DNA of 50,937 nt, from the NCBI GenBank assembly GCA_013821985.1, contig PNJQ01000020.1, positions 1-50,937 of the forward strand. Direction: 5' to 3'. Positions 261-25,178 of this stretch are shown piece by piece. Each line of letters begins with the position of its first letter. Position 1 is the stretch's first letter. A program made the translations under genes and the position numbers. The notes under the pieces are model-generated. The model was not told where the DNA came from, did no database searches, and saw nothing but the letters and a program-made list of their open reading frames with translations. The DNA comes from Opitutus sp. Its GTDB lineage: Bacteria; Verrucomicrobiota; Verrucomicrobiia; Opitutales; Opitutaceae.

Positions 261-1592
261 ATGCCCTTTAAAGCTCTCAATCTGTCCGAGCCCGTTCTCC
301 GCGGCGTCCAAGCCGCCGGTTACACCGACCCGACTCCCATCCAGCTGCGCGCGATTCCCGTCGTGCTCGGCGGCGGCGATCTCATCGGTTCCGCCCAGAC
401 CGGCACCGGCAAAACGGCCGCGTTCGCGCTGCCCGTTCTCACCCGCCTCGGCAAACACGCCGCCAAACCGCGCGTGCTCGTCCTCGAGCCGACGCGCGAA
501 CTCGCCGCGCAAGTCGAGACCGCCTTCCGCGATTTCGCCCGCTTCACCGATCTCCGCACCGTCGCCGTCTTCGGCGGCGTCGGCTACGGCAGCCAGCGCA
601 GCGAACTCCGCAAAGGCGTCGATGTGATCGTCGCGACGCCCGGCCGCCTCATGGATTACGTCCAGGACGGCTCGATCAATCTCCGCGACATCCAAATTCT
701 CATCCTCGACGAGGTGGATCGCATGCTCGACATGGGCTTCCTCCCCGTCGTGAAAGACATCATCGGCCGCTGCCCGCGTGAGCGCCAGACGCTCTTCTTC
801 TCGGCCACCGTGCCGCCGGAGATTGCCGCCGTCGCGTCCTTCGCCCTGCGCAATCCGACCAAGGTCGAGATCGGCGTCAGCCGCTCGGTCAACAACTCCA
901 TCAACCACGCGCTCTACCCGGTCGCGTTCGGCCAGAAGTTCGACCTGTTGCTCGCGCTGCTCGAAAAGACCGAGTTCGACAGCGTGCTCGTCTTTTCGCG
1001 CACCAAGCACGGCGCCGACAAAATCGCTCGCCGCCTCAAGGCCGCCAATCACTCCGTCGCTGTCCTGCACGCCAACCGCTCGCAGAACCAGCGCATCGAA
1101 GCGCTCGCCGGCTTCAAGTCCGGCAAATACGAGGTGATGGTCGCGACCGACATCGCCGCCCGCGGCATCGACGTCGCCGGCGTCACACACGTCATCAATT
1201 ACGACGTCCCGGAAAATCCCGAGGACTACGTCCACCGCATCGGCCGCACCGGCCGCGCGCAGGCTGTTGGTGACGCGTTCACGCTCGTCACGCCGGAAAA
1301 CGCCGACGACATCCGCGACATCCAGCGCTTCATCGGCCAAAAGATACCGGAACTTCGTCTCGAAGGTTTTGATTACCTGCCCTTCGGCGTCGCCCAACCC
1401 AAACAGCCCCGCGGCCAACGTGGCGGGGGTGGCGGCGGCGGCGGTCACCGTGGCGGTAATCGCAGCGGCGGAGGCGGCGGTGGTGGTCGCAGCGGCGGTT
1501 TTCGCAGTGGTCATGGCGGTGGTGGCGGCGGAAATCCGAACCGCGATAACAACGGCGGCAAAGTCGGTTTCAGCTTCCGCGGTCGCCGCTGA
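261..1592 (+). CDS. rhlE: DEAD-box ATP-dependent RNA helicase, RhlE type
   Basis: RNA-dependent ATPase that unwinds RNA duplexes, with likely roles in ribosome assembly, RNA decay or cold adaptation. The 443-aa product has the superfamily 2 motifs in order: Q motif (about 20-28), motif I AQTGTGKT (45-52), PTRELAAQ (77-84), TPGRL (126-130), motif II (150-153), SAT (181-183), then ARGID and HRIGRTGR in the second RecA-like domain. Motif II reads DEVD rather than DEAD. The last roughly 55 residues are a Gly/Arg-rich low-complexity tail that probably binds RNA. ATG at 261 is preferred over the in-frame GTG at 234 because the family homology starts immediately there. A strong terminator follows, so it is probably monocistronic. 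The assignment within the RhlE group is by motif and tail, not alignment. Confidence 0.94.
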   Translation: MPFKALNLSEPVLRGVQAAGYTDPTPIQLRAIPVVLGGGDLIGSAQTGTGKTAAFALPVLTRLGKHAAKPRVLVLEPTRELAAQVETAFRDFARFTDLRTVAVFGGVGYGSQRSELRKGVDVIVATPGRLMDYVQDGSINLRDIQILILDEVDRMLDMGFLPVVKDIIGRCPRERQTLFFSATVPPEIAAVASFALRNPTKVEIGVSRSVNNSINHALYPVAFGQKFDLLLALLEKTEFDSVLVFSRTKHGADKIARRLKAANHSVAVLHANRSQNQRIEALAGFKSGKYEVMVATDIAARGIDVAGVTHVINYDVPENPEDYVHRIGRTGRAQAVGDAFTLVTPENADDIRDIQRFIGQKIPELRLEGFDYLPFGVAQPKQPRGQRGGGGGGGGHRGGNRSGGGGGGGRSGGFRSGHGGGGGGNPNRDNNGGKVGFSFRGRR

Positions 1593-1827: not shown

Positions 1828-2436
1828 CAAAGAAAAATTCCCGTCTCCGCCGTCCAAAAACACCTCGCGCAACTCTCCGCGTGCACGGCGTGCCCACGCA
1901 TGCACAAACCAGTTGTCGTCGGCCGGCCGGTGGTCTCGCGCGTCTTGCTCGTGGGACAGGCGCCGGGCGACAAGGAGCCGGTGTTCGGCCGGCCGTTCGC
2001 GTGGACCGCCGGCAAGACGCTTTTCAAGTGGTTCCACGGAGCGCTCGGCTGGAGCGAGGACGAGACGCGCGACCGCCTTTACTTCGCCGCCGTCTGTCGG
2101 TGCTTTCCCGGGAAAAAGGAATCCGGCGGCGACCGCGTGCCGGATGACGACGAAATTGCCGCGTGTTCGCGCTGGCTCGCGGCGGAAATGGCGCTGTTGC
2201 AGCCCGCGCTCGTGCTGCCGGTCGGCAAGCTCGCCATCTCGCAATTCATGCCGACCGCACCGCTGAACGATCTGATCGGGAAAAAATATCGGATCGAATT
2301 CCGTGGCCACGCGCTCGACTGCATTCCGTTGCCGCACCCGTCCGGCGCGTCGCCGTGGCACCGCATGGAGCCGGGCAAGACACTCCTCCGGCAGGCGCTG
2401 GCGCTCGTCGCGCGGCACCCGGCGATTCTCGGCTGA
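1822..2436 (+). CDS. Uracil-DNA glycosylase, family 4/5-like (Fe-S type)
   Basis: Base-excision repair enzyme that removes uracil from DNA. With a GTG start at 1822 the product is about 204 aa. It shows CTACPRM near the N-terminus (Cys21, Cys24), GQAPG (45-49), a central VCRCFPGK segment, EIAAC, and an HPSGASPW motif near the C-terminus. The spacing of the four cysteines matches the [4Fe-4S] ligands known for family 4 UDGs. The reading frame is open back to 1669, but that extension translates a palindromic repeat and a GC-rich hairpin copy, so a start at 1813 or 1822 is preferred. The exact start is uncertain. No operon partner is evident; the next gene starts 58 nt downstream. Confidence 0.82.
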   Translation: MVQRKIPVSAVQKHLAQLSACTACPRMHKPVVVGRPVVSRVLLVGQAPGDKEPVFGRPFAWTAGKTLFKWFHGALGWSEDETRDRLYFAAVCRCFPGKKESGGDRVPDDDEIAACSRWLAAEMALLQPALVLPVGKLAISQFMPTAPLNDLIGKKYRIEFRGHALDCIPLPHPSGASPWHRMEPGKTLLRQALALVARHPAILG

Positions 2437-2494
2437 CGCCGGGTTTTCGGTTGCCTCGCCGATTTTGCGCCGCTGTGTTGCGCGCATCTTTTTG

Positions 2495-3571
2495 ATGAAG
2501 CTCGTCGTTCCTCTTATTGTCCTCTGGTTGTCGTGCGTCGCTGCCGCGTTCGCTCAAAAAAGCACGGGCTCGTTTACGGGAGCGGTCGCCATCGACGCCG
2601 CGACCGGACAGGTGCTCGCGGAAGAGAGCGCCGACACACAGAATCCGCCCGCGAGCATGACGAAGCTCATGACCTTCGCCGTCCTGCATGACGCGCTCGC
2701 CGCCGGCACGCTGACGCTCCAGACGCCGGTGCAAATCGACGTGGCGGATTCGAGAATGGGCGGAACGCAGGTTTTTCTCGACCCGCGCGAAACGTTCACC
2801 GTGGAGGAACTGCTTTACGCGATGATGATTCAGTCCGCCAACGACGCCGCGCATGCACTCGCGCGCGCGGCCGCAGGCTCCGTGCCGGCCTTCGTCGAGC
2901 GGATGAACGCCAAGGCGCATGCGCTGGGCATGAACGCCACGACCTTTCGGACGCCGCACGGCCTCCCGCCGCCGAGCCGCCGCGTCTCCGAAGGCGATCT
3001 TTCAACGTCGCGCGACTTCGCGCTGCTCTGCCGGCACCTGATCCGACAGACCGACGTGCTCAAATACACGGCGATCCGCGAGCGGCCCTTCGGACCGGCG
3101 CGGACGCAGGGACTGTTGCAGATGCGCAATCACAACAATCTCCTCGGCAAAGTCGCCGGCGTGGACGGTCTTAAAACCGGTTACACCGCCGCGGCCGGTT
3201 ACTGCCTCAGCGCGACCGCCGAGCGCAACGGACGCCGCGTCATCGCAGTCGTCATGGGCGCACTCGGGCCGGGCCGCACGGTGGACAAAGGCCGGTTCCG
3301 GGACCTGAAGGCCATCGAGTTTCTCGATCGTGGCTTCGCCGCGCTCGCCCAATCGCCGGCTTCTGAGGTGGGAGGGGCTTTACGCCCCGACAGTGCGGCG
3401 GCGAATCCAACCTCGGGGCGTAAAGCCCCTTCCCCCATTTCCGCGACGGACGCACTGCCGACGGTGAAAACCGAATCAACGGCGCCTCCTGCCGCTGCGG
3501 CCTCGACCTCGACCGACCTGACCGTCACCTTTCGCGTCACTCCTCCCGCGTCCACGCCCAAGAAAAAATGA
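2495..3571 (+). CDS. dacA: D-alanyl-D-alanine carboxypeptidase (peptidase S11, PBP5/6 type)
   Basis: Penicillin-binding protein that trims the terminal D-Ala from peptidoglycan pentapeptides outside the cytoplasmic membrane. The 358-aa product begins with a signal peptide (1-21). It carries the three active-site motifs: SMTK (Ser54-Lys57), SAN (114-116) and KTG (227-229). The catalytic domain ends around residue 280. The C-terminal tail (about 290-358) is Pro/Ala/Thr-rich; residues about 292-314 are encoded by a palindromic repeat (see the repeat at 3367-3436). No clear C-terminal amphipathic anchor helix is seen. Its stop codon overlaps the start of the FKBP gene (ATGA), indicating translational coupling. 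Confidence 0.94.
   Translation: MKLVVPLIVLWLSCVAAAFAQKSTGSFTGAVAIDAATGQVLAEESADTQNPPASMTKLMTFAVLHDALAAGTLTLQTPVQIDVADSRMGGTQVFLDPRETFTVEELLYAMMIQSANDAAHALARAAAGSVPAFVERMNAKAHALGMNATTFRTPHGLPPPSRRVSEGDLSTSRDFALLCRHLIRQTDVLKYTAIRERPFGPARTQGLLQMRNHNNLLGKVAGVDGLKTGYTAAAGYCLSATAERNGRRVIAVVMGALGPGRTVDKGRFRDLKAIEFLDRGFAALAQSPASEVGGALRPDSAAANPTSGRKAPSPISATDALPTVKTESTAPPAAAASTSTDLTVTFRVTPPASTPKKK
3367..3436. repeat. Paired inverted REP-like element inside the dacA coding region
   Basis: The left arm (3370-3390) and right arm (3413-3435) are inverted copies with one extra base, and each arm is itself palindromic around a TTTA/TAAA centre. The 25 nt at 3367-3391 recur identically at 15533-15557 inside another gene. 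The reading frame stays open through both arms. Confidence 0.8.
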
Positions 3572-4062
3572 GTCCCTCCTTCCGCCGCTTCGCGTTTTTG
3601 TTCGTTGTCTTTTTCTGCGCCGCCGCCGCGCCGCTGCACGCCCAGCGTGAGCGCCTCCCGCCCGAGGATCTCGAAATCGTCGAGCAGCGTTGGCCGAACG
3701 CCAAGAAAACTTCCACCGGACTGCGCTACATCGTCCTTAAGGAAGGCGATCAAAACGGTCCGACGCCCGAGGCCGGCATGCGCGCCGCTGTGCTCTACAA
3801 GGGCATGCTGCTCGACGGAACCGTGTTCGATCAATCACTGGACCCCGAAAAACCCTTTCGTCCCCGCATCGGCCGCGACGAGCTGATCCAAGCTTGGGAC
3901 CAGGCGCTGATGCGCATGCGCAAGGGCGAGAAATGGCTTCTCATCGTTCCCTACGAGCTCGGCTACGGCACGCGCGGCAATCCGCCCAAGATCCCCAAGC
4001 GCGCCACACTTGTCTTCGAAATGGAGCTGCTCGATTTCGGCCGGAATTTGCCGCTCGAGTAA
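3568..4062 (+). CDS. FKBP-type peptidyl-prolyl cis-trans isomerase, exported
   Basis: Catalyses proline isomerisation during folding of exported proteins. The 164-aa product has an N-terminal signal peptide (about 1-25, ending HAQ). A linker is followed by a single FKBP domain (about 50-160) with the family segments LYKGMLLDGTVFDQS and a GEKWLLIVPYELGYG-like stretch. It overlaps dacA by 4 nt, so both envelope proteins are probably made from one mRNA. It ends 11 bp from the convergent SGNH hydrolase gene, and no terminator fits in that gap. Confidence 0.92.
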   Translation: MSPSFRRFAFLFVVFFCAAAAPLHAQRERLPPEDLEIVEQRWPNAKKTSTGLRYIVLKEGDQNGPTPEAGMRAAVLYKGMLLDGTVFDQSLDPEKPFRPRIGRDELIQAWDQALMRMRKGEKWLLIVPYELGYGTRGNPPKIPKRATLVFEMELLDFGRNLPLE

Positions 4063-4073
4063 GTCACGGCGTG

Positions 4074-4796
4074 TCAGCGCAGGAGCGCCTCAAGCGTCGG
4101 CTGCATCGCGTTGGCCCAAGCGCGCAAGCCCGCCGGACTCGGGTGCAGGCGATCGGGTAACAGCTCGGTGCGGATCTCGCCGTTCGGCGCGACGAACGCA
4201 TGGCCGACGTCGAGAAAGTGGACGTTTTTTCCGTCGGCGAGGCGCGGCAACGTGGCATTGGCGCCGTTGATCACGGCCATCCGCGCCTCCCAGTTTTCGT
4301 CCTCGCCTTGTTTGTTTTTGCGCGGACCGCGTGGAAATATTCCGAGCAGCAGGATCTTCGACTCCGGTAATTTCGCACGCACCAGTCCGACAATTTTTTC
4401 GATCCCACCGACGATTTGCGACGCCGGGTGCGAGGCGGAATTGTTCGTGCCGATCAGGATGACGACCACGCGCGGCGCGAGGCCGTCGAGTTCGCCGTGT
4501 TCAATCCGCCAGAGAAGATTCTGGGTCTGGTCGCGACTCAGGCCGAAGTTCGCCGCGTGGTGCGCGCCGTAGCGCGCTTCCCACAGCTCAGGCGCCGTGC
4601 TCCAACGCGCGGTGATCGAGTCGCCGAGGAACAGCAAGCCGACCGGCCCGGATTTCGCGCGGGCGAGAAACGAAGCGTGCGCGTTGCGGAATTCCTCCGT
4701 GTCCTGCGGCAGCGCCGTGGACGCGTCAGGTGAGGGAACTTGGGCGGGCAGCATCACGGTGGCGCAAAAGATCAGCGGCAGGAAACGGCGCAACAT
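4074..4796 (-). CDS. SGNH/GDSL-family hydrolase, exported
   Basis: Likely esterase, acetylhydrolase or lipase-like enzyme of the SGNH fold, related to platelet-activating-factor acetylhydrolases. The 240-aa product has a short N-terminal hydrophobic signal (about 1-18). Block I is LFLGDSITARW with the nucleophile Ser60, the block II Gly lies in NFGLSRDQ, block III is GTNN, and block V is DRLHPS with the catalytic Asp and His. The substrate cannot be read from sequence; carbohydrate acetyl esterases share this pattern. It lies 9 bp downstream of the rarD-like gene on the same strand and is probably co-transcribed with it. Confidence 0.88.
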   Translation of the reverse strand: MLRRFLPLIFCATVMLPAQVPSPDASTALPQDTEEFRNAHASFLARAKSGPVGLLFLGDSITARWSTAPELWEARYGAHHAANFGLSRDQTQNLLWRIEHGELDGLAPRVVVILIGTNNSASHPASQIVGGIEKIVGLVRAKLPESKILLLGIFPRGPRKNKQGEDENWEARMAVINGANATLPRLADGKNVHFLDVGHAFVAPNGEIRTELLPDRLHPSPAGLRAWANAMQPTLEALLR

Positions 4797-4805
4797 GGGC
4801 GCAGG

Positions 4806-5711
4806 CTAACCGAGCATGCTTTTGCGGTGCACCCAAAAACTGTCCGCCGAGTAACACGCCAGACCCGTCCAAATCAGTCCGAACGCGACGACGCGCGCCC
4901 CGTCGAACGCCTCGTGATAGACCAGCCAGCCGAGCAGGAACGCAAGGGACGGCCCGATGTATTGCAGCAGCCCGAGCGTCGTGAGTCGGATGCGGCGCGC
5001 GCCGTAGGCGAACCACACGAGCGGAATCGCGGTGATCCAGCCCGAGCAGAAGATCAGCACATGGTCGCGCATACTCACGTGGCCGAGCGCGCCTTGGTGA
5101 TGCGCCGCGAGCCAGATCAGATAGCCGGCCGTGAGCGGAAGAAACAACAGCGTCTCCACCGTCAGTCCATCGAGCGCGCCCATTGGCGATTTTTTCCGGA
5201 TCAGCCCGTAGCCGCTCCACGTCACGGCGATGATGAACGAAACCCACGGCACGTGATCGACGCGCGCGAGCAGCCAGGCGACACCCGCGGCGGCGAGCGC
5301 GATCGCCACCCATTGCAGCGGACGCGGGCGCTCGTGGAAAAATATAAAACCCGCGGCGACGTTGATCAGCGGCACGAGAAAATAGCCAAGGCTCGAGTCG
5401 AGAATGTGTCCGTTGTTCACCGCCCAGATGAACGTCAGCCAATTTAGCATCAACAGCAGCCCCGTCGCGGCATTGTAGCCGAGGACGCGTTTGGAGCGGA
5501 ACGCCTGCGCGATCACGCCGAGCTGGTTTTGCCACTTGAGCACGCCGAGCAGGAAAACCAGCGACCACACCGCGCGATGCATGATCAGCTCGACGGGGCT
5601 GATGTGCCCGAGCCATTTCCAGTAAACCGGGATGAGCCCCCAAAATGTGAACGCGCCGACCGCAGCGAGGGTGCCGCGACGAGCTTCGGGATGGACGGGT
5701 GCGAGGGACAA
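4806..5711 (-). CDS. rarD: RarD-like EamA/DMT-family transporter
   Basis: Integral membrane permease of the drug/metabolite transporter superfamily. The 301-aa length and the N-terminal pattern (TFWGLIPVYWKWLGHISPVELIMHR) fit the RarD subgroup, known from E. coli as chloramphenicol-sensitivity protein. About ten hydrophobic helices are visible. Its real substrate is unknown. It is followed closely by the SGNH hydrolase gene. Confidence 0.88.
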   Translation of the reverse strand: MSLAPVHPEARRGTLAAVGAFTFWGLIPVYWKWLGHISPVELIMHRAVWSLVFLLGVLKWQNQLGVIAQAFRSKRVLGYNAATGLLLMLNWLTFIWAVNNGHILDSSLGYFLVPLINVAAGFIFFHERPRPLQWVAIALAAAGVAWLLARVDHVPWVSFIIAVTWSGYGLIRKKSPMGALDGLTVETLLFLPLTAGYLIWLAAHHQGALGHVSMRDHVLIFCSGWITAIPLVWFAYGARRIRLTTLGLLQYIGPSLAFLLGWLVYHEAFDGARVVAFGLIWTGLACYSADSFWVHRKSMLG

Positions 5712-5838
5712 GGAGGCGAACTCTGCCCCACGCCCGGCACCGCGTCAACGGGCCGCGCAATTGCCGCCGTGGATTCGCGCCAACTGATTTCAATCGTCCG
5801 CATCGCGAGCCATTCGCGCGCCGAGTTTGCCTGAGGCG

Positions 5839-5861
5839 GTCGCCGCCGTCCCGGCGGCGAC
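5839..5861. repeat. GC-rich hairpin in the 5712-5959 intergenic stretch
   Basis: A 10-bp perfect stem (5839-5848 with 5852-5861) has a 3-nt loop. A related sequence occurs near 1671-1692, so it is probably another dispersed palindrome. The rest of the stretch between the rarD-like gene and the terminator at 5960 shows no convincing gene. Confidence 0.6.
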
Positions 5862-5959
5862 AGGAGCGCGTCTCAGCGGTCGCGAACGTCCCACCGCGCC
5901 GTCGGGGACGCCGGCGCCCACCTTGCTTCCGCGCGGGCCGGCCGTGCTCGGCGTCGCGC

Positions 5960-5997
5960 AAAAAAGAAGGCGGACGGCGATCGCTCGCCGCCCGCCT
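5960..5997 (-). terminator. Rho-independent terminator, minus strand
   Basis: Read on the minus strand, a 13-bp stem (5985-5997 with 5968-5980, one mismatched pair) with a 4-nt loop is followed by TCTTTTTTG. It lies 21 nt past the stop codon of the small secreted protein gene. Confidence 0.82.
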
Positions 5998-6018
5998 CGC
6001 TCGCCCTGCACGGCGAGT

Positions 6019-6432
6019 TTACCGCTGGTTCGCGGCAAGCTGTTGGAGCGACGGCACGAGGCGTTTTTCGAGCAGCGCGGTGACCGTGGCGCGATCGGCG
6101 AGGACGAGGGCGGTGACACGCGAGTTTTCGAAGCGCACCACGAGGCTGCCGGTGAATTCGCGCCCATCGGTCGCCGCGGCGCGGTAGTGCGAGTAGAGCC
6201 AGCTGCCATCGGGCAAGATGCGCGTCGGCGCACCGAGCCGCAGTTGCACATTGATGCGGCCGTCGCCCACGCCGATCGAGTCACCGTTGGCGTGGACGCG
6301 CGCTTCGACGCGGTTGATCAGGACGAATCCGCCGGGGAGCGCCGAGCGATCGGCGGCCGAGGCGACGAGCGGGAGTGAGCAACTCAGCGCGAGGAGCGTC
6401 AGGACGGAGCGGAGGGTGAGGGAGTTTTTCAT
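6019..6432 (-). CDS. Small exported protein, SmpA/BamE-like domain
   Basis: The 137-aa product has a clear signal peptide (about 1-27, ending ASAA) followed by a small domain. The segment VQLRLGAPTRILPDGSWLY and the later SLVVRFENSRVTALVL resemble the pattern of SmpA/BamE-like domains (LG.PT...W.Y, then a beta-strand with F and V). Unlike BamE there is no lipobox cysteine, so it would be soluble in the periplasm. Family assignment is by pattern only. It is transcribed divergently from the sensor kinase gene, and the shared 201-bp upstream region holds the periodic repeat array. It has its own terminator. Confidence 0.75.
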   Translation of the reverse strand: MKNSLTLRSVLTLLALSCSLPLVASAADRSALPGGFVLINRVEARVHANGDSIGVGDGRINVQLRLGAPTRILPDGSWLYSHYRAAATDGREFTGSLVVRFENSRVTALVLADRATVTALLEKRLVPSLQQLAANQR

Positions 6433-6514
6433 GGGACGATTGGGTTGAGTGAGAGAAGATTTTCTTTCGACGCCCGCACTCTGCCCGGGGCGCCGCGGCA
6501 AATCGAAATCCGCC

Positions 6515-6589
6515 GGGTGAACCGCTCGCCCGCCGGGCGAATTCCGCTCGCACGCGGGTGAACGGCTCGTCCGGTCCGTGAACAGCTCG
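6515..6589. promoter_or_regulatory. Four direct repeats at 20-21 bp spacing, candidate LytTR operator
   Basis: Imperfect repeats of the form GTGAACNGCTCG begin at 6515, 6535, 6556 and 6576 (the second is degenerate), giving steps of 20, 21 and 20 bp. On the minus strand each good copy reads CGAGCNGTTCAC. LytTR-type regulators are known to bind direct repeats containing a GTT core about two helical turns apart, which fits this layout. The array lies between the divergent secreted-protein gene and the sensor kinase/LytTR operon. Binding is inferred. Confidence 0.6.
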
Positions 6590-6633
6590 GGAAACGCGTG
6601 GACGCTCGCGTCCGCTCCTCCTATCACCTTCGC

Positions 6634-8394
6634 ATGCGCTCGTGCTTTCTCGTCCTTCTGCTCGTGATTTTCGCGAGCGCTGGGCGGGCGAGCGTTGCGG
6701 CGCAGCCGGACTTGCGGATCCGCCACGGTGACGATCCGCGCTGGGCCGCGCCCGACTGGGATGACGCCGATTGGCAACGTATGGCAGCGTCGGAATTCCC
6801 TGCGCGGGCGGGCGTGTTCTGGGTGCGTATTCGTTACCAGCGGCTGGACGAACCTCCGGACGGTCCGACCCTGCCGGATCGATACTCGTATCTCTGGCCG
6901 GCGAGTTGGGAAGGCGGCGCGGTGGACGCGCTGTTTCTCTCGTCGGTTTATAGCTTCGAGCTGTTTCTCGACGGCGTCCCGTTGGCGCGTGGTGGAGTTG
7001 TCGGGCGCGACCGCGACTCGGAGCGCGTCGGGCCGCTCGACCACCTCGTGCTCGTGCCGGAAAAGTTGCGCGGTCCGGGCGAGCACGTGCTCGCGCTGCG
7101 CATGTCGACTTACCACTACAATTTTCCAGCCGACACTTTCAGTGCGGGCGTCCAGCCGGTGAATCACGCGCAGTGGGTGCGGCGCGAGGCTCTGCAGCCG
7201 GTCGCACCGCTCATCGCCGCCGCGACCTCGGTCCTGATGGCGATCACGGCGTTCGTGTTGTTCGGGTCGGTCGAACGCCGGCGGCTGCTCGCGCTCGTGA
7301 TCGCGGTGAACCTCGTGTTGGCGACATTCTACGCGTTGATCGCGGCCCGCTGGCTCGTGGCCTATCCCTACGATTGGCATTACCCTCGCCTTGTCTTTAT
7401 CACCCTGCTGTTGGCGATGGCGGGACTTTTGCTGATCTGGCTCCTGCTGGAGCAATTCGGCGCGCCAAGAAAAATACTCTGGCTCGCGACGTTCGCGGCG
7501 CTCGTTTTCGCGGCGTGGCAAACGTCGTCGATCTACGAAATCAAGGCGCTGTGGATCTGCCGGGCGCTGCTGGTTGTGGCGCTCGCGCTCGCCGCCTGGG
7601 CCTGCTGGCGCCGGCGGCCAGGCGCGTGGTTCGCGCTCGCGGGCGTCGGCATCGCGCTCCTCATTGTCCGCACCGATCGCCGGGCATTTCTCGACCCGAC
7701 TTTTTTCCTCACGATCGAGGGACTAGTGCTGCTCGTCTTTGCGGGCGTGGGGGCGCAACTGCAGCGCGAGCGCCGGCGCGCGCGTGATGCGCAGCTGACC
7801 GCCGCGCGCATGGAGATCGAACTGCTGAAGAAAAATCTCCAGCCGCATTTTCTGCTCAACACGCTTACCGCCGTTTCCGAGGTGATCGAGGCCGACCCAG
7901 CCGGCGCGGTGCGCTTCATCGACGACCTCGCGGCGGAGTTCCGCTCGCTCGCCGCGATGTCCGGCGAGCGCCTCGTGCCGTTGCAGCGCGAACTCGACCT
8001 GTGCCGCGCGCACTTGAAAGTCATCACCCGCCGGACCGGCCGCGCGATCGGTCTCGCGGTCGAAGGCGTGCGCGAGGACGCGTTGGTGCCGCCGGCGATC
8101 TTTCTGACGCTGATCGAAAACGGGCTGGTTCATCAACGCACCGAGGCCGGCGCGGAGTTCCGCCTCCGCGCGCACGTAACGGACGAGGCGGCACGCTACG
8201 AATTCTTTTCGCCCGGCCACAAACGCACGGACGATCGCCCGTCCGGCGGCACGGGCTTGCGCTATGTGCAGGCGCGGCTCGAGGAGAGCTTCCGCGGACG
8301 GTGGACGTTCTCACACGGCGCAGTGCCGGGCGGCTGGGAGACGGTGGTCGGTTGGCGCGTGCCGCGACCCGGCTGCGGGGAGGATGCGCCGTGA
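6634..8394 (+). CDS. Sensor histidine kinase, LytS/His_kinase type, seven-TM receptor
   Basis: Membrane sensor that phosphorylates the adjacent LytTR regulator. The 586-aa product has a signal peptide (1-24) and an extracytoplasmic N-domain (about 25-185) with a jelly-roll or galactose-binding-like look. About seven hydrophobic segments follow (roughly 195-385). The cytoplasmic His_kinase domain has the phospho-acceptor in LQPHFLLNT (His405), and a reduced HATPase region includes LIENGLVH. The arrangement resembles 7TMR-DISM receptors fused to LytS kinases. ATG 6634 is preferred over GTG 6598 because it starts the signal peptide. The stop codon overlaps the regulator's GTG start, so the pair is translationally coupled. 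The ligand is unknown. Confidence 0.88.
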   Translation: MRSCFLVLLLVIFASAGRASVAAQPDLRIRHGDDPRWAAPDWDDADWQRMAASEFPARAGVFWVRIRYQRLDEPPDGPTLPDRYSYLWPASWEGGAVDALFLSSVYSFELFLDGVPLARGGVVGRDRDSERVGPLDHLVLVPEKLRGPGEHVLALRMSTYHYNFPADTFSAGVQPVNHAQWVRREALQPVAPLIAAATSVLMAITAFVLFGSVERRRLLALVIAVNLVLATFYALIAARWLVAYPYDWHYPRLVFITLLLAMAGLLLIWLLLEQFGAPRKILWLATFAALVFAAWQTSSIYEIKALWICRALLVVALALAAWACWRRRPGAWFALAGVGIALLIVRTDRRAFLDPTFFLTIEGLVLLVFAGVGAQLQRERRRARDAQLTAARMEIELLKKNLQPHFLLNTLTAVSEVIEADPAGAVRFIDDLAAEFRSLAAMSGERLVPLQRELDLCRAHLKVITRRTGRAIGLAVEGVREDALVPPAIFLTLIENGLVHQRTEAGAEFRLRAHVTDEAARYEFFSPGHKRTDDRPSGGTGLRYVQARLEESFRGRWTFSHGAVPGGWETVVGWRVPRPGCGEDAP

Positions 8395-9089
8395 AGCTCG
8401 TGCTCATCGAGGACGAGCCGCTGGTCGCCCAACGCCTCGAGCGTTTCTGTCGCGAGATTCTGGGTGCGGAGCTGGAGAAGCTGCACGTCGCCTCCAGCTT
8501 CGACGCAGCCGCGGGATGGCTGGCGGAGCATCCGGTGGACGTAACGTTGCTCGACTTGAATCTCGAAGGGCGCGACGGCATGGAACTGCTCCGGCGCAGC
8601 GTGGCAGGCGCGTTCCACACGGTGATCGTGTCGGCGAACACCGATCGTGCGCTCGAGGCGTTTCAATATGGCGTGCTCGATTTCGTGCCGAAGCCCTTTA
8701 CGCGCGAGCGGCTCGCCCAGGCGTTCGACCGCGCTCGCGGCGCGCTGACGCGCGGTGGCGGCACCGCCAAAAATCTCGCGGTGCGCAAGGCCGGTCGCGT
8801 GGAGTTGATCGCCGTTGACGACGTGCTCTTCGTGCAGGGCGCCGGCAATTATTCCGAACTCGTGCTCGCCAGTGGGCGCCGCGAACTGCACGACAAGACG
8901 CTGGAGAAACTTGCGGCGATCCTGCCGCCGGATTTCGAGCGCCTGCACAAGAGCTACCTCGTGCGCCTCAGCGCCCTCAAGGCGTTGCACGCGAGCGAAG
9001 GCAGTCACTACGAAGCGGAATTGAAGAATGGCACGCGACTCCCGATCGGCCGCACGCGCTACAAGGAACTACGGGCCAAGTTGGTGTAG
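8391..9089 (+). CDS. LytTR-family response regulator
   Basis: The 232-aa product has a receiver domain (1-120) with an acidic pocket at IEDEP, phospho-acceptor Asp55 in LLDLNLEG and Lys in PKPF. It is followed by a LytTR DNA-binding domain (about 130-232, with ERLHKSYLVRLSAL and the GRTRYKELR end). It starts with GTG, overlapping the kinase stop by 4 nt. It likely activates or represses genes through direct-repeat sites such as those at 6515-6589, possibly its own operon and the divergent secreted protein. Confidence 0.92.
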   Translation: MKLVLIEDEPLVAQRLERFCREILGAELEKLHVASSFDAAAGWLAEHPVDVTLLDLNLEGRDGMELLRRSVAGAFHTVIVSANTDRALEAFQYGVLDFVPKPFTRERLAQAFDRARGALTRGGGTAKNLAVRKAGRVELIAVDDVLFVQGAGNYSELVLASGRRELHDKTLEKLAAILPPDFERLHKSYLVRLSALKALHASEGSHYEAELKNGTRLPIGRTRYKELRAKLV

Positions 9090-9160: not shown

Positions 9161-9655
9161 TCACTTTGCCGCAGGCACCGTCGTCGATTGATAAGACGCG
9201 AGCTGCCAGCGACCGTCTTTCACGACATAGACCGCGGTGATGAACAACGTCGGCTTCGCCGTGCGACCGTCCGGAAGCGCCACCTCGATTTGCGTCGTGC
9301 CGTTCAGCAGCGCCGTCTCGGTGCCGTAGAGTCGCACTTGCGGTGGAGCGATGTAGCGGATGACCGCGTATTTCATCGCGCCGCTCTTCAGTGCGTCGAG
9401 AAATTCCGCTTTCGTTTGCGTCGATCCATTCGAGTGCGCGTAGAGGCAGTCTGCGGTGAGCATGTCGTCGAGCGCGCCAACATCCGGCGCGAGCATCGCG
9501 TAAACGCGGGCCTCGTCGGCGCGGAGCACGGCGGCCTTGAGTCCGTCCGCGAGCGTCGCGCGCTGGGCGACGGCGCTTCCTGCCACACCAAAAGCGAAGA
9601 TGAGCGCGAAGAGTTGTGGCGCGCGGCGTGACGCGAGTTGGGCGACGGCATTCAT
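9161..9655 (-). CDS. Exported SnoaL/DUF4440-like (NTF2-fold) protein
   Basis: The 164-aa product has a signal peptide (about 1-30, ending AVAQR) followed by an NTF2-like fold domain. The pattern includes MLTADCLYAHSNG, TKAEFLDALKSG and KDGRWQLASYQST, typical of DUF4440 proteins. Members are small cone-shaped domains with diverse or unknown activities; no catalytic role can be assigned. The start overlaps the stop of the upstream thioesterase gene by 4 nt, so they are coupled. Confidence 0.85.
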   Translation of the reverse strand: MNAVAQLASRRAPQLFALIFAFGVAGSAVAQRATLADGLKAAVLRADEARVYAMLAPDVGALDDMLTADCLYAHSNGSTQTKAEFLDALKSGAMKYAVIRYIAPPQVRLYGTETALLNGTTQIEVALPDGRTAKPTLFITAVYVVKDGRWQLASYQSTTVPAAK

Positions 9656-10059
9656 GCGCGATGCACCGGGTGCGGCCGGCCTTTGTCGTCGATCGCGACG
9701 TAGGTAAAGTTGCCCTCGGTGACCTTGAGCAGCGTGCCGTCCTTGCCGCGCTGCACCCAGGCCTCGACGTCGATCTTCATCGAGGTGCGGCCGACTTTCA
9801 GAAGCGTGGCGTGGCAGTTCACGATGTCGCCGACGTAAACGGGATTCAAAAAAACCATGCCATCGACCGCCACGGTCGTCACGCGGCTGCGGGAAATGTT
9901 TTTTGCGACGATTGCTGCGCCCAAGTCCATTTGCGACATGAGCCAGCCGCCGAAGATATCGCCATTCGCGTTCGTGTCCGCCGGCATGGCGATCGTGCGA
10001 ATGACGAGTTCGCCGTGCGGCTCGGTCGAGGAGGGGATCGGTGCGGTCGGGTCGGGCAT
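9652..10059 (-). CDS. Acyl-CoA thioesterase, YciA/hotdog family
   Basis: Cytoplasmic hotdog-fold enzyme hydrolysing acyl-CoA esters. The 135-aa product from ATG 10059 shows the family core NANGDIFGGWLMSQMDLGAA, with the catalytic Asp in the loop before the hotdog helix, and then TVAVDGMVFLNPVYVGDIV. An in-frame ATG at 10077 would add six residues. Its stop codon overlaps the start of the NTF2-like gene. Chain-length preference is unknown. Confidence 0.9.
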   Translation of the reverse strand: MPDPTAPIPSSTEPHGELVIRTIAMPADTNANGDIFGGWLMSQMDLGAAIVAKNISRSRVTTVAVDGMVFLNPVYVGDIVNCHATLLKVGRTSMKIDVEAWVQRGKDGTLLKVTEGNFTYVAIDDKGRPHPVHRA

Positions 10060-10108
10060 GACGCAGCGAAGATGCACGCCTCACGCGGCCCCGCAAGCCC
10101 GCCGTCCT

Positions 10109-23253: not shown

Positions 23254-24453
23254 ATGTCGTCCTCCGCCTCGTCGCTCCGCTACGCAGACAAACTTGCGCC
23301 GGAGGCAGCGGCCGTGGTTCGCTCCGCGACGTTGCGGCACCGCCTAGCCAGCTCCTTCACCTACCTCTCGACCGGCGAGCGGCTCTACTGGGTGTGTCAG
23401 TTCGTCAGCTGGTTGTTTTTCTACTTGGTGAATTTGACGATCGTCTCCGCGTTCGCGGAGATGAAGCCGGCGGTCGCGGTTTGGCTGGCGGCCTTCATGC
23501 TCGTGGGACTCGAGATGACGCAGCGCTTCCGGCTGCACGTCCGCCGCGCCAACTGGCTTCAGTTGCCGCTGCCCAGGCTCATCGGCCGCGTGGTGGTTGC
23601 GGTGTTCTTCATGGCGATGGTCCACACGGCGTTCACCGTGCTGAGTTCGATGGCGTTTCTCGGCGGAGTGGCGCCGGGGAGGTCGGTCACGATCGTGCAG
23701 ATTTTCGGCATCGTCCTGACCAACCTGTTCAACATGAGCATCGTTTTCGGCGTGTGGGCGGGACTCTATTTTGCCGTCCAAACCGTCCGACGCCAGCGCC
23801 ACTCGGAGATGGAGCGCCTGCGCCTCGAGACGAGCCTGAAGGAAGCCGAACTCCGCGCGCTGAAATCGCAGGTGAACCCGCATTTCCTCTTCAATTCCCT
23901 GAACAGCCTGCGCGCGCTCATCGAAGAGGACGCGCCGCGCGCCCGCGAGTCCGTCACGCGCCTCGCCAACATGCTACGCTACTCGCTCCAGTCCGGGCAG
24001 CTCGAGACCGTGCCGTTCGAAGACGAGTTGCGCATCGTGGAGGACTACCTCGCCTTGGAACAAATCCGCCACGAAAACCGCCTCCGCGTCCGTTGGGAAA
24101 TTTCCGACGAGGTCCGCGCGCGCTTCCTGCCGCCGATGCTGCTCCAGACACTCGTAGAGAACGCCGTGAAATACGGCATCTCGCAGCGCCGCGGCGGGGG
24201 CGAACTCGTCGTGGCGGCCCGCATCGATTCGGGCAATCTGCTCATCCGCGTCTCCAACCCGGGCGATCTCACCCATCCGGCTGCAGCCTCCGCCGCCGCC
24301 AAGGCCGGCTCATCCACCGGAGTCGGCCTGCGCAACGCCTCCGAGCGCCTCAAATTGCTCTTCGGTGAAAAGGCCCGCCTCGCGCTCCGTTCGGAATCGC
24401 CCGGCTGGGTCACGGCCGAAGTGGTCATCCCGCTCGCCTCACCCGCCCCATGA
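23254..24453 (+). CDS. LytS-type sensor histidine kinase (NatK-like position)
   Basis: The 399-aa product has about four transmembrane helices (roughly 45-170), a coiled-coil linker, then a His_kinase domain with the phospho-acceptor in QVNPHFLFNSL (His210). A compact HATPase domain follows (LVENAVKYGI, TGVGLRNASERL). No periplasmic sensor domain of note is present, so it may sense the membrane or a membrane partner. It overlaps the LytTR regulator start by 4 nt. The downstream NatA/NatB-like ABC genes suggest a kinase-regulator-transporter unit like Bacillus natKR-natAB. Confidence 0.92.
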   Translation: MSSSASSLRYADKLAPEAAAVVRSATLRHRLASSFTYLSTGERLYWVCQFVSWLFFYLVNLTIVSAFAEMKPAVAVWLAAFMLVGLEMTQRFRLHVRRANWLQLPLPRLIGRVVVAVFFMAMVHTAFTVLSSMAFLGGVAPGRSVTIVQIFGIVLTNLFNMSIVFGVWAGLYFAVQTVRRQRHSEMERLRLETSLKEAELRALKSQVNPHFLFNSLNSLRALIEEDAPRARESVTRLANMLRYSLQSGQLETVPFEDELRIVEDYLALEQIRHENRLRVRWEISDEVRARFLPPMLLQTLVENAVKYGISQRRGGGELVVAARIDSGNLLIRVSNPGDLTHPAAASAAAKAGSSTGVGLRNASERLKLLFGEKARLALRSESPGWVTAEVVIPLASPAP

Positions 24454-25178
24454 AAGCCCTGCTGATCGACGACGAGCGCCTCGCGCGCAATGAACTCCGC
24501 CGCCTCCTCGCAGTCCACAAGGATATCGAGATCGCTGGCGAGGCGGTGGATGTCGATGACGCGCTTGAAAAAGTCGCCACGCTCAAGCCCGACCTCCTGT
24601 TCCTCGATGTGCAGATGCCGGGCGCCGACGGCTTCTCGCTCCTCGAACGCCTCGAGATGCCGATGCCGCTCGTCATTTTCACGACGGCCTACGACGAGTT
24701 CGCCGTGAAGGCCTTTGAGTTCAACGCGCTGGATTACCTGCTCAAGCCGGTCGATCCGACGCGTCTCGGCGCCTCGCTCGAAAAACTCCGCATGCGCGCG
24801 TCCGCCTCTGCGGAGGGCGGCGACAACATCGCGCGCACGCGCCTCTCGCTCGAGGACAAGGTCTTCGTCCGCGAGGGCGACCAGTGCTGGTTCGTGCCGG
24901 TGAAGAACATCCGGCTGCTCGAATCCGAGGGCAACTACACGCGCGTGCATTTCGACGACAACAAGCCGCAGCTTTTCCGCTCGCTCACCGCGATGGAGGA
25001 ACGGCTCGATCCGAAGCATTTCTTCCGCGCCAACCGCAAGCAGGTGATCAACCTGGCGTGGGTGGACGGCATCGAGCCGTGGTTCAGCGGCGGCCTGCTC
25101 GTGCGCCTGAAGGGCGGCCTGAAGGTCGAGCTCTCGCGCCGGCAGGCGCAGGACTTCCGCGACCGGATGAGCCTCTGA
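24450..25178 (+). CDS. LytTR-family response regulator (NatR-like position)
   Basis: The 242-aa product has a receiver (1-118) with LLIDDER, phospho-acceptor Asp53 in LFLDVQMPG and Lys in LLKPVDP. A LytTR DNA-binding domain follows (about 135-242, KVFVREGDQCWFV to FFRANRKQVINLAWV). It is coupled to the kinase by an ATGA overlap. Its likely targets are its own operon and the ABC genes downstream. No clear repeat pair was found in the short 23163-23253 upstream region. Confidence 0.93.
   Translation: MKALLIDDERLARNELRRLLAVHKDIEIAGEAVDVDDALEKVATLKPDLLFLDVQMPGADGFSLLERLEMPMPLVIFTTAYDEFAVKAFEFNALDYLLKPVDPTRLGASLEKLRMRASASAEGGDNIARTRLSLEDKVFVREGDQCWFVPVKNIRLLESEGNYTRVHFDDNKPQLFRSLTAMEERLDPKHFFRANRKQVINLAWVDGIEPWFSGGLLVRLKGGLKVELSRRQAQDFRDRMSL

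What the first reader, a model, noticed from the sequence alone, without database searches (positions are those of the whole stretch)
6515..6589. Four direct repeats at exact two-turn spacing before a sensor kinase/LytTR operon
Copies of GTGAACNGCTCG (second one degenerate) start at 6515, 6535, 6556 and 6576: steps of 20, 21 and 20 bp, putting all on one DNA face. LytTR regulators are known to bind such GTT-core direct repeats. The array lies between this operon and a divergent secreted protein, suggesting autoregulation plus a second target. Four copies rather than the usual two suggest cooperative binding.
Basis: partly seen in the sequence, partly recalled or inferred. Interest (0 to 1): 0.7.

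Follow-up and report, generated by a model that had tools for sequence, protein, structure and literature searches.

The report
Two-way LytTR operator at sensor operon
Four evenly spaced DNA repeats between a sensor-kinase/regulator operon and a divergent secreted-protein gene are very probably binding sites through which the regulator controls its own promoter and perhaps the neighbouring one; the kind of switch is known, but this doubled, two-way version is conserved across related bacteria.

Summary
The repeats are real: they start at 6517, 6537, 6558 and 6578 (2 bp right of the stated positions), steps 20/21/20, copy 2 degenerate. The same four-site array at exactly 20/21/20 precedes the same kinase gene in 11 of 22 anchored Opitutaceae loci; two more carry four-site variants. 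A two-site version (same core, 20-bp step) precedes homologous kinase/LytTR operons in 7 of 9 Bacteroidota loci read. The strict pair AACNGCTCG-N11-AACNGCTCG occurs 9 times in 252 Opitutaceae genomes, each time just upstream of this kinase.

Best reading: sites 3-4 are the LytTR activator site of the operon promoter (TNGAC -35 box; start codon 35-36 nt after it in 15 of 22 loci, so perhaps leaderless). Sites 1-2 serve the divergent gene: five invariant columns form TCG/17 bp/NANNNT. All 13 four-site loci have that gene (BamE-like, secreted); 7 of 8 readable loci with fewer sites lack it. Orphan kinases keep arrays without an adjacent regulator, suggesting control in trans.

LytTR autoregulatory direct repeats are known, so this is a new variant of a known kind. 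Binding and direction of control are inferred, not shown.

The parts
6517..6528 (+). site S1, GTGAACCGCTCG (distal pair)
   Evidence: sequence; mean commonest-base frequency 0.89 over 11 exact four-site loci
6537..6550 (+). site S2, degenerate, GCGAATTCCGCTCG (distal pair)
   Evidence: weakest of the four sites (0.76) over the 11 loci
6558..6569 (+). site S3, GTGAACGGCTCG (proximal pair)
   Evidence: frequency 0.985 over the 11 loci
6578..6589 (+). site S4, GTGAACAGCTCG (proximal pair)
   Evidence: frequency 0.90 over the 11 loci
6599..6604 (+). putative operon -35 box TGGACG, 9 bp beyond S4
   Evidence: T, G, A, C columns invariant in 13 of 13 four-site loci
6622..6627 (+). putative operon -10 box TATCAC, 17-bp spacer; start codon 6634 is 35 nt after the -35 T
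   Evidence: NANNNT found in 18 of 22 loci but the window is one of the 4 misses
6501..6506 (-). putative divergent -35 box TCGATT, 10 bp beyond S1
   Evidence: TCG invariant in 13 of 13 four-site loci
6478..6483 (-). putative divergent -10 box CAGAGT, 17-bp spacer; predicted transcript start about 6471
   Evidence: A and T columns invariant in 13 of 13 loci; transcript start is inference
6019..6432 (-). divergent 137-aa protein with a signal-peptide-like N-terminus, BamE-like fold
   Evidence: fold
6634..8394 (+). LytS-type sensor histidine kinase, 586 aa
   Evidence: Pfam His_kinase 7.9e-13
8391..9089 (+). receiver-LytTR response regulator, 232 aa
   Evidence: Pfam LytTR 3.8e-17, Response_reg 4.2e-16

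Best explanation
The array is a bidirectional operator for the LytTR response regulator encoded at 8391-9089. An activated regulator dimer on S3-S4 sits just upstream of the -35 box and activates a weak promoter whose transcript starts at or near the kinase start codon: positive autoregulation. A second dimer on S1-S2 controls, most likely activates, the divergent promoter of the BamE-like secreted protein. Shown: the repeats, their conservation and spacing, their link to this kinase family in the genomes searched, fixed promoter-like boxes on both sides, and co-occurrence of the distal pair with the divergent gene. Inferred: that the LytTR protein is the binder, that binding activates, that the mRNA is leaderless, and that each pair serves one promoter.
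For: Array at 20/21/20 in 11 of 22 anchored Opitutaceae loci plus two four-site variants. Two sites 20 bp apart upstream of the kinase in 7 of 9 Bacteroidota loci read. Strict pair: 9 hits in 252 genomes, 9 of 9 just upstream of the kinase, 0 in the 225 genomes without a kinase match at E 1e-30, 0 control hits. Invariant columns outside the sites in 13 four-site loci: TNGAC on the operon side (plus the G after S4), TCG-(21 nt)-A-(3 nt)-T on the divergent side. Divergent gene present in 13 of 13 four-site loci and 1 of 8 readable others. Geometry matches published LytTR sites: 9-11 nt repeats separated by 11-13 nt (PMC4847170, passages), mostly 10 bp upstream of -35 in autoregulated LRS operons (PMC6193735, passages). 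Several kinase genes without an adjacent family regulator keep the array while the genome has a family regulator elsewhere.
Against: No binding or expression data. Only 9 of 27 kinase-bearing genomes have the strict pair; the rest have variants or none seen. G273c has kinase and regulator but no array was seen upstream. Homologues from other phyla show no pair in 6 of 6 loci read by eye. G162 has the divergent gene with only the proximal pair. The window's own -10 lacks the final T. Both pairs face the same way, so the distal pair is reversed relative to its promoter. Loci share ancestry and are not independent. The box on the operon side helped set some anchors outside the four-site set.
Confidence: 0.8

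Rival explanations
1. All four sites form one cooperative array serving the operon promoter only; the divergent gene is a bystander.
For: The 21-bp step between the pairs is exact in 11 loci, keeping helical phase; CoxC needs all three of its repeats for efficient binding (PMC11347149, passages).
Against: Two-site and three-site loci exist; the distal pair co-occurs with the divergent gene (13 of 13 against 1 of 8); S1 keeps its distance to TCG even in G025 where the pairs are about 62 bp apart.
Confidence: 0.2
2. The LytTR protein represses one or both promoters from these sites.
For: The LytTR protein CoxC represses through three direct repeats overlapping its -35 box (PMC11347149, passages).
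Against: Here the sites end 9 bp before the operon -35 and 10 bp before the divergent one and overlap neither; both boxes look weak, as at activator-dependent promoters (inference).
Confidence: 0.15
3. Another DNA-binding protein, not the LytTR regulator, recognises the repeats.
For: Several sites are near-palindromic with flanks (CGAGCCAACGGCTCG, seen), which could suit a dimeric repressor; array-bearing orphan kinases lack an adjacent regulator.
Against: The flanking arms are not kept in the window; the same pair precedes homologous kinase/LytTR operons in two phyla; the five orphan loci lie in four genomes that each have a family regulator elsewhere, partial in G112.
Confidence: 0.08

Closest known systems
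LytTR Regulatory System operon promoters (HdrR/BrsR type; PMC6193735, passages read)
   Same: Direct repeats 11-13 bp apart, mostly 10 bp upstream of -35, in the regulator's own operon promoter; positive autoregulation
   Different: LRS pair a LytTR regulator with a membrane inhibitor; here a histidine kinase and receiver-LytTR regulator, four sites, two divergent promoters
AgrA at agr P2/P3 (PMC4227749, passages read)
   Same: A LytTR response regulator acting on two promoters of one intergenic region through direct repeats
   Different: Here all four sites are in one orientation in a phased 61-bp array; the divergent target is a BamE-like protein
RcoM1 and CoxC operators (PMC11347149, passages read)
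   Same: LytTR proteins using more than two evenly spaced direct repeats
   Different: One-component sensors, three repeats; CoxC represses
YpdA/YpdB and yhjX (PMC4847170, passages read)
   Same: LytS/LytTR pair, direct repeats, sequential cooperative binding of two sites
   Different: Target gene is the transporter yhjX promoter, two sites; no array of four described in the passages read

Membership tests
LytTR-type direct-repeat operator | Direct repeats of 9-11 nt separated by 11-13 nt (period about 20-24) | tested here: met
   period 20/21/20; core repeat AACNGCTCG with 11-12 nt between (definition from PMC4847170)
LytTR-type direct-repeat operator | Sites lie just upstream of the -35 box | tested here: met
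   9 bp to the inferred operon -35, 10 bp to the divergent one; boxes are inferred from conservation
LytTR-type direct-repeat operator | A LytTR-domain protein is linked to the sites | tested here: met
   regulator at 8391-9089; family regulator adjacent in most anchored loci, elsewhere in the genome for orphan kinases
LytTR-type direct-repeat operator | Physical binding by the LytTR protein | not testable with these tools
   needs footprint or gel shift
LytTR Regulatory System (regulator plus membrane inhibitor) | Stand-alone LytTR regulator co-transcribed with an inhibitory membrane protein | tested here: not met
   regulator has a receiver domain and the partner is a His_kinase protein
LytS/LytTR two-component system | His_kinase (PF06580) protein next to receiver-LytTR protein | tested here: met
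BamE (divergent protein) | BamE fold | tested here: inconclusive
   first 15 Foldseek hits are BamE but best E is 6e-3; model mean pLDDT 70
BamE (divergent protein) | Pfam BamE match above the gathering score | tested here: not met
   no family for the window copy; 2 of 14 members weak, best E 0.083

The most novel reading that the evidence does not exclude
A nearly self-contained sensory circuit shared by Verrucomicrobiota and Bacteroidota: the regulator's detectable targets are only sensor-kinase promoters (its own and orphan kinase paralogues in trans) and, in Opitutaceae, one divergent BamE-like envelope protein, whose control arose by doubling an ancestral two-site operator into a phased four-site bidirectional one. 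Its output would be sensor abundance and one envelope protein rather than a wide regulon.
Probability: 0.35. Interest if true: 0.6.

Novelty: new variant of a known kind. Interest (0 to 1): 0.45.

Why it matters
It gives a defined candidate operator, regulator and target set for a LytTR family in a group where my full-text searches found nothing on it: LytTR with Opitut returned 0 papers, LytTR with Verrucomicrobi 9 whose listings look incidental (none opened). The repeated joint presence or absence of two sites and one neighbouring gene is a natural experiment on how a two-site LytTR operator becomes bidirectional. Orphan kinases that keep the operator without an adjacent regulator make control in trans directly testable. 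The divergent BamE-like protein becomes a candidate output of the sensor.

Tried and rejected
Chance repeat: rejected by shuffles and by conservation. Wider regulon: with 2 mismatches at period 20 in 10 genomes there were 104 hits (54 forward, 50 reverse) against 78 for the reversed-pattern control; by my count 15 of the 104 lie in arrays beside this kinase, two of those places beside paralogous kinases of G060 (= G194); I did not look at the context of the others. A looser pattern with period 20 or 21 hit 105 of 252 genomes and was too noisy; its match list was cut. RNA element: not pursued, since the sites lie upstream of the predicted promoter. Homologues from Fibrobacteres, Aminicenantes, Krumholzibacteriia and Gemmatimonadales: no pair seen by eye in 6 of 6 loci (L073, L075, L077, L080-L082); L074 and the partial L071 were not read. 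Divergent-type proteins at 16 unlinked loci (L181-L196): no family kinase, no strong site pair in the flanks held, one weak regulator-model match (L192, E 5e-4); further weaker matches had no locus and were not examined.

Rows not used: of 34 kinase matches listed, 22 were anchored. Left out: the second kinase of G103 (no intergenic region), G105 (contig end), G273c (no array seen), G215 (one good site), G190, G191, G020, G217, G219, G221 and two of G222 (distant; several matches start inside the protein, so the true upstream was not reached, and one of G222 was not fetched). Anchors were set by hand from the automatic scores. For the nine loci outside the four-site set the TNGAC box helped choose the anchor, so counts over 22 loci are partly circular for that box; among the 13, G025's anchor and the S1 offsets of G166 and G025 were set by hand from site matches. 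The G112 kinase row in the tree stops at an in-frame TAG.

Full report
OBSERVATION. The intergenic region 6433-6633 holds GTGAACCGCTCG at 6517, GCGAATTCCGCTCG at 6537, GTGAACGGCTCG at 6558 and GTGAACAGCTCG at 6578. Shuffling that region reached the observed four-copy score in 0 of 300 trials. Elsewhere in the 50.9-kb window one place scores slightly higher (52 at 1452, in the glycine-rich tail of a helicase ORF) and one scores 48 (37825), so the score alone would not single the array out.

SURROUNDINGS. To the right lie a LytS-type histidine kinase (6634-8394, Pfam His_kinase 7.9e-13) and, overlapping it by 4 bp, a receiver-LytTR response regulator (8391-9089). To the left, divergently, lies a 137-aa protein whose N-terminus looks like a signal peptide (6019-6432, by eye). 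Downstream and convergent are a DUF4440 protein and a 4HBT thioesterase-family protein.

RELATIVES. A kinase search gave matches at E 1e-30 or better in 27 of 252 Opitutaceae genomes and in 0 of the 12 other genomes of the window's genus, so the system is patchy. I anchored 22 of the 34 listed kinase matches. Eleven have four sites at exactly 20/21/20 (window, G172, G168, G109, G273a, G272a, G194b, G097, G110, G103, G035). G166 has 20/22/20 in the automatic fit; G025 has two pairs about 62 bp apart instead of 41. Six have two or three good sites (G162, G112, G194a, G194c, G272b, G177); three are weak (G273b, G024, G230). Among those not anchored, G273c showed no array and G215 one good site. 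In the 11 exact loci the commonest-base frequency is 0.89, 0.76, 0.985 and 0.90 in the four sites, against 0.55, 0.65 and 0.64 in the spacers between them; the second site is the weakest, as in the window.

OTHER PHYLA. Only 3 of 244 genomes searched in that family have the kinase at E 1e-40. The two Flavobacterium loci have one clear and one doubtful site. Six homologues from other phyla show none by eye.

SPECIFICITY. The strict pair AACNGCTCG-N11-AACNGCTCG occurs 9 times in 252 Opitutaceae genomes, with 0 reversed-pattern control hits; 9 of 9 lie just upstream of this kinase and none falls in the 225 genomes without a kinase match. The other 18 kinase-bearing genomes lack the strict form and have variants or nothing seen. 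With period 20 or 21, 7 of 10 ortholog-bearing genomes had one hit each, 7 of 7 at the kinase. With two mismatches, 104 hits stand against 78 controls; 15 of the 104 are in arrays beside this kinase, including two paralogous kinases of G060 (= G194). In the Aquimarina and Chitinophaga genomes the exact looser pair is found once each, at the kinase. Weak extra targets cannot be excluded.

PROMOTERS. In the 13 four-site loci the invariant columns in the 75 nt beyond S4 are the G right after it and T, G, A, C at +21, +23, +24, +25. In the 75 nt beyond S1 on the other strand there are five: TCG, then an A and a T at the second and sixth positions of a -10 hexamer with a 17-bp spacer. On the operon side NANNNT lies 16-18 bp beyond the -35 hexamer in 18 of 22 loci, against a mean of 1.8 and maximum of 5 at shifted positions; the window (TATCAC) is one of the four misses. 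A start codon in the kinase frame (ATG or GTG, in some loci one of several) lies 35 or 36 nt after the -35 T in 15 of 22 loci, which would place the transcript start on the start codon; a leaderless mRNA is inferred.

THE DIVERGENT GENE AND THE DISTAL PAIR. A homologous divergent gene is present at 13 of 13 four-site loci. Of eight loci with fewer sites and readable flanks only G162 has it; it was not found at G194a, G194c, G112, G177, G273b, G024, G230; G272b ends too soon to tell. Fisher p is 7e-5, but the loci are not independent. On the kinase tree the four-site label needs 5 changes, at least 4 forced by well-supported branches, so joint loss probably happened more than once. In G025, where the pairs are further apart, S1 still keeps its distance to TCG. 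This favours two modules over one cooperative array.

ORPHAN KINASES. G194b, G194c, G112, G272b and G273b show no family regulator in the downstream stretches read, yet each of those four genomes encodes one elsewhere (in G112 only residues 70-231 match). G273b's own sites are weak. In G194b the kinase is followed directly by convergent DUF4440 and 4HBT genes, the same pair that follows the regulator in the window, as if the regulator had dropped out. G194b keeps a four-site array, so control in trans is likely there.

DIVERGENT PROTEIN. Pfam gives nothing for the window copy and weak BamE for 2 of 14 members. The AlphaFold model has mean pLDDT 70 with a core near 90, and its first 15 Foldseek hits are BamE at E 6e-3 or worse. 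I call it BamE-like, not BamE. Relatives of it occur elsewhere: 28 of 252 genomes match, and 14 listed matches lie at the kinase loci.

COMPARISON. Published LytTR sites are 9-11 nt repeats separated by 11-13 nt without a common consensus (PMC4847170, passages). LRS operons have such repeats mostly 10 bp upstream of -35 and are positively autoregulated (PMC6193735, passages). AgrA acts on two promoters of one intergenic region (PMC4227749, passages). RcoM1 and CoxC use three repeats (PMC11347149, passages). The window's array works like a LytTR autoregulatory operator, doubled to serve two promoters. A search for LytTR with 'four direct repeats' found 0 papers, LytTR with Opitut 0, LytTR with Verrucomicrobi 9 whose listings look incidental.

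LIMITS. No binding, expression or 5'-end data exist here. The window's assembly is 79% complete. Direction of regulation is inferred from position, and the signal sensed is unknown.

Noticed in passing
window 23254-25178 (+): A second LytS-type kinase (His_kinase 6.4e-27) and receiver-LytTR regulator pair in the same window; it has no hit of the strict site pair, which occurs once in this assembly.
   Followed up: partly
L153 430-1466; window 9164-10077 (-): DUF4440 and 4HBT thioesterase genes lie convergent to the kinase operon both in the window and beside the orphan kinase G194b, where the regulator gene is missing between them.
   Followed up: partly
L068 (G103), about 2230-6690: Two kinase genes of the family in tandem before one regulator, with a single four-site array in front of the first.
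   Followed up: partly
window about 1424-1592 (+): Glycine-rich tandem coding repeat in the tail of a DEAD-box-like helicase ORF; it gives the highest 21-bp repeat score of the window.
   Followed up: no
L181-L196: Distant relatives of the divergent BamE-like protein occur elsewhere in other Opitutaceae, several per genome in some, away from this kinase; function unknown.
   Followed up: partly
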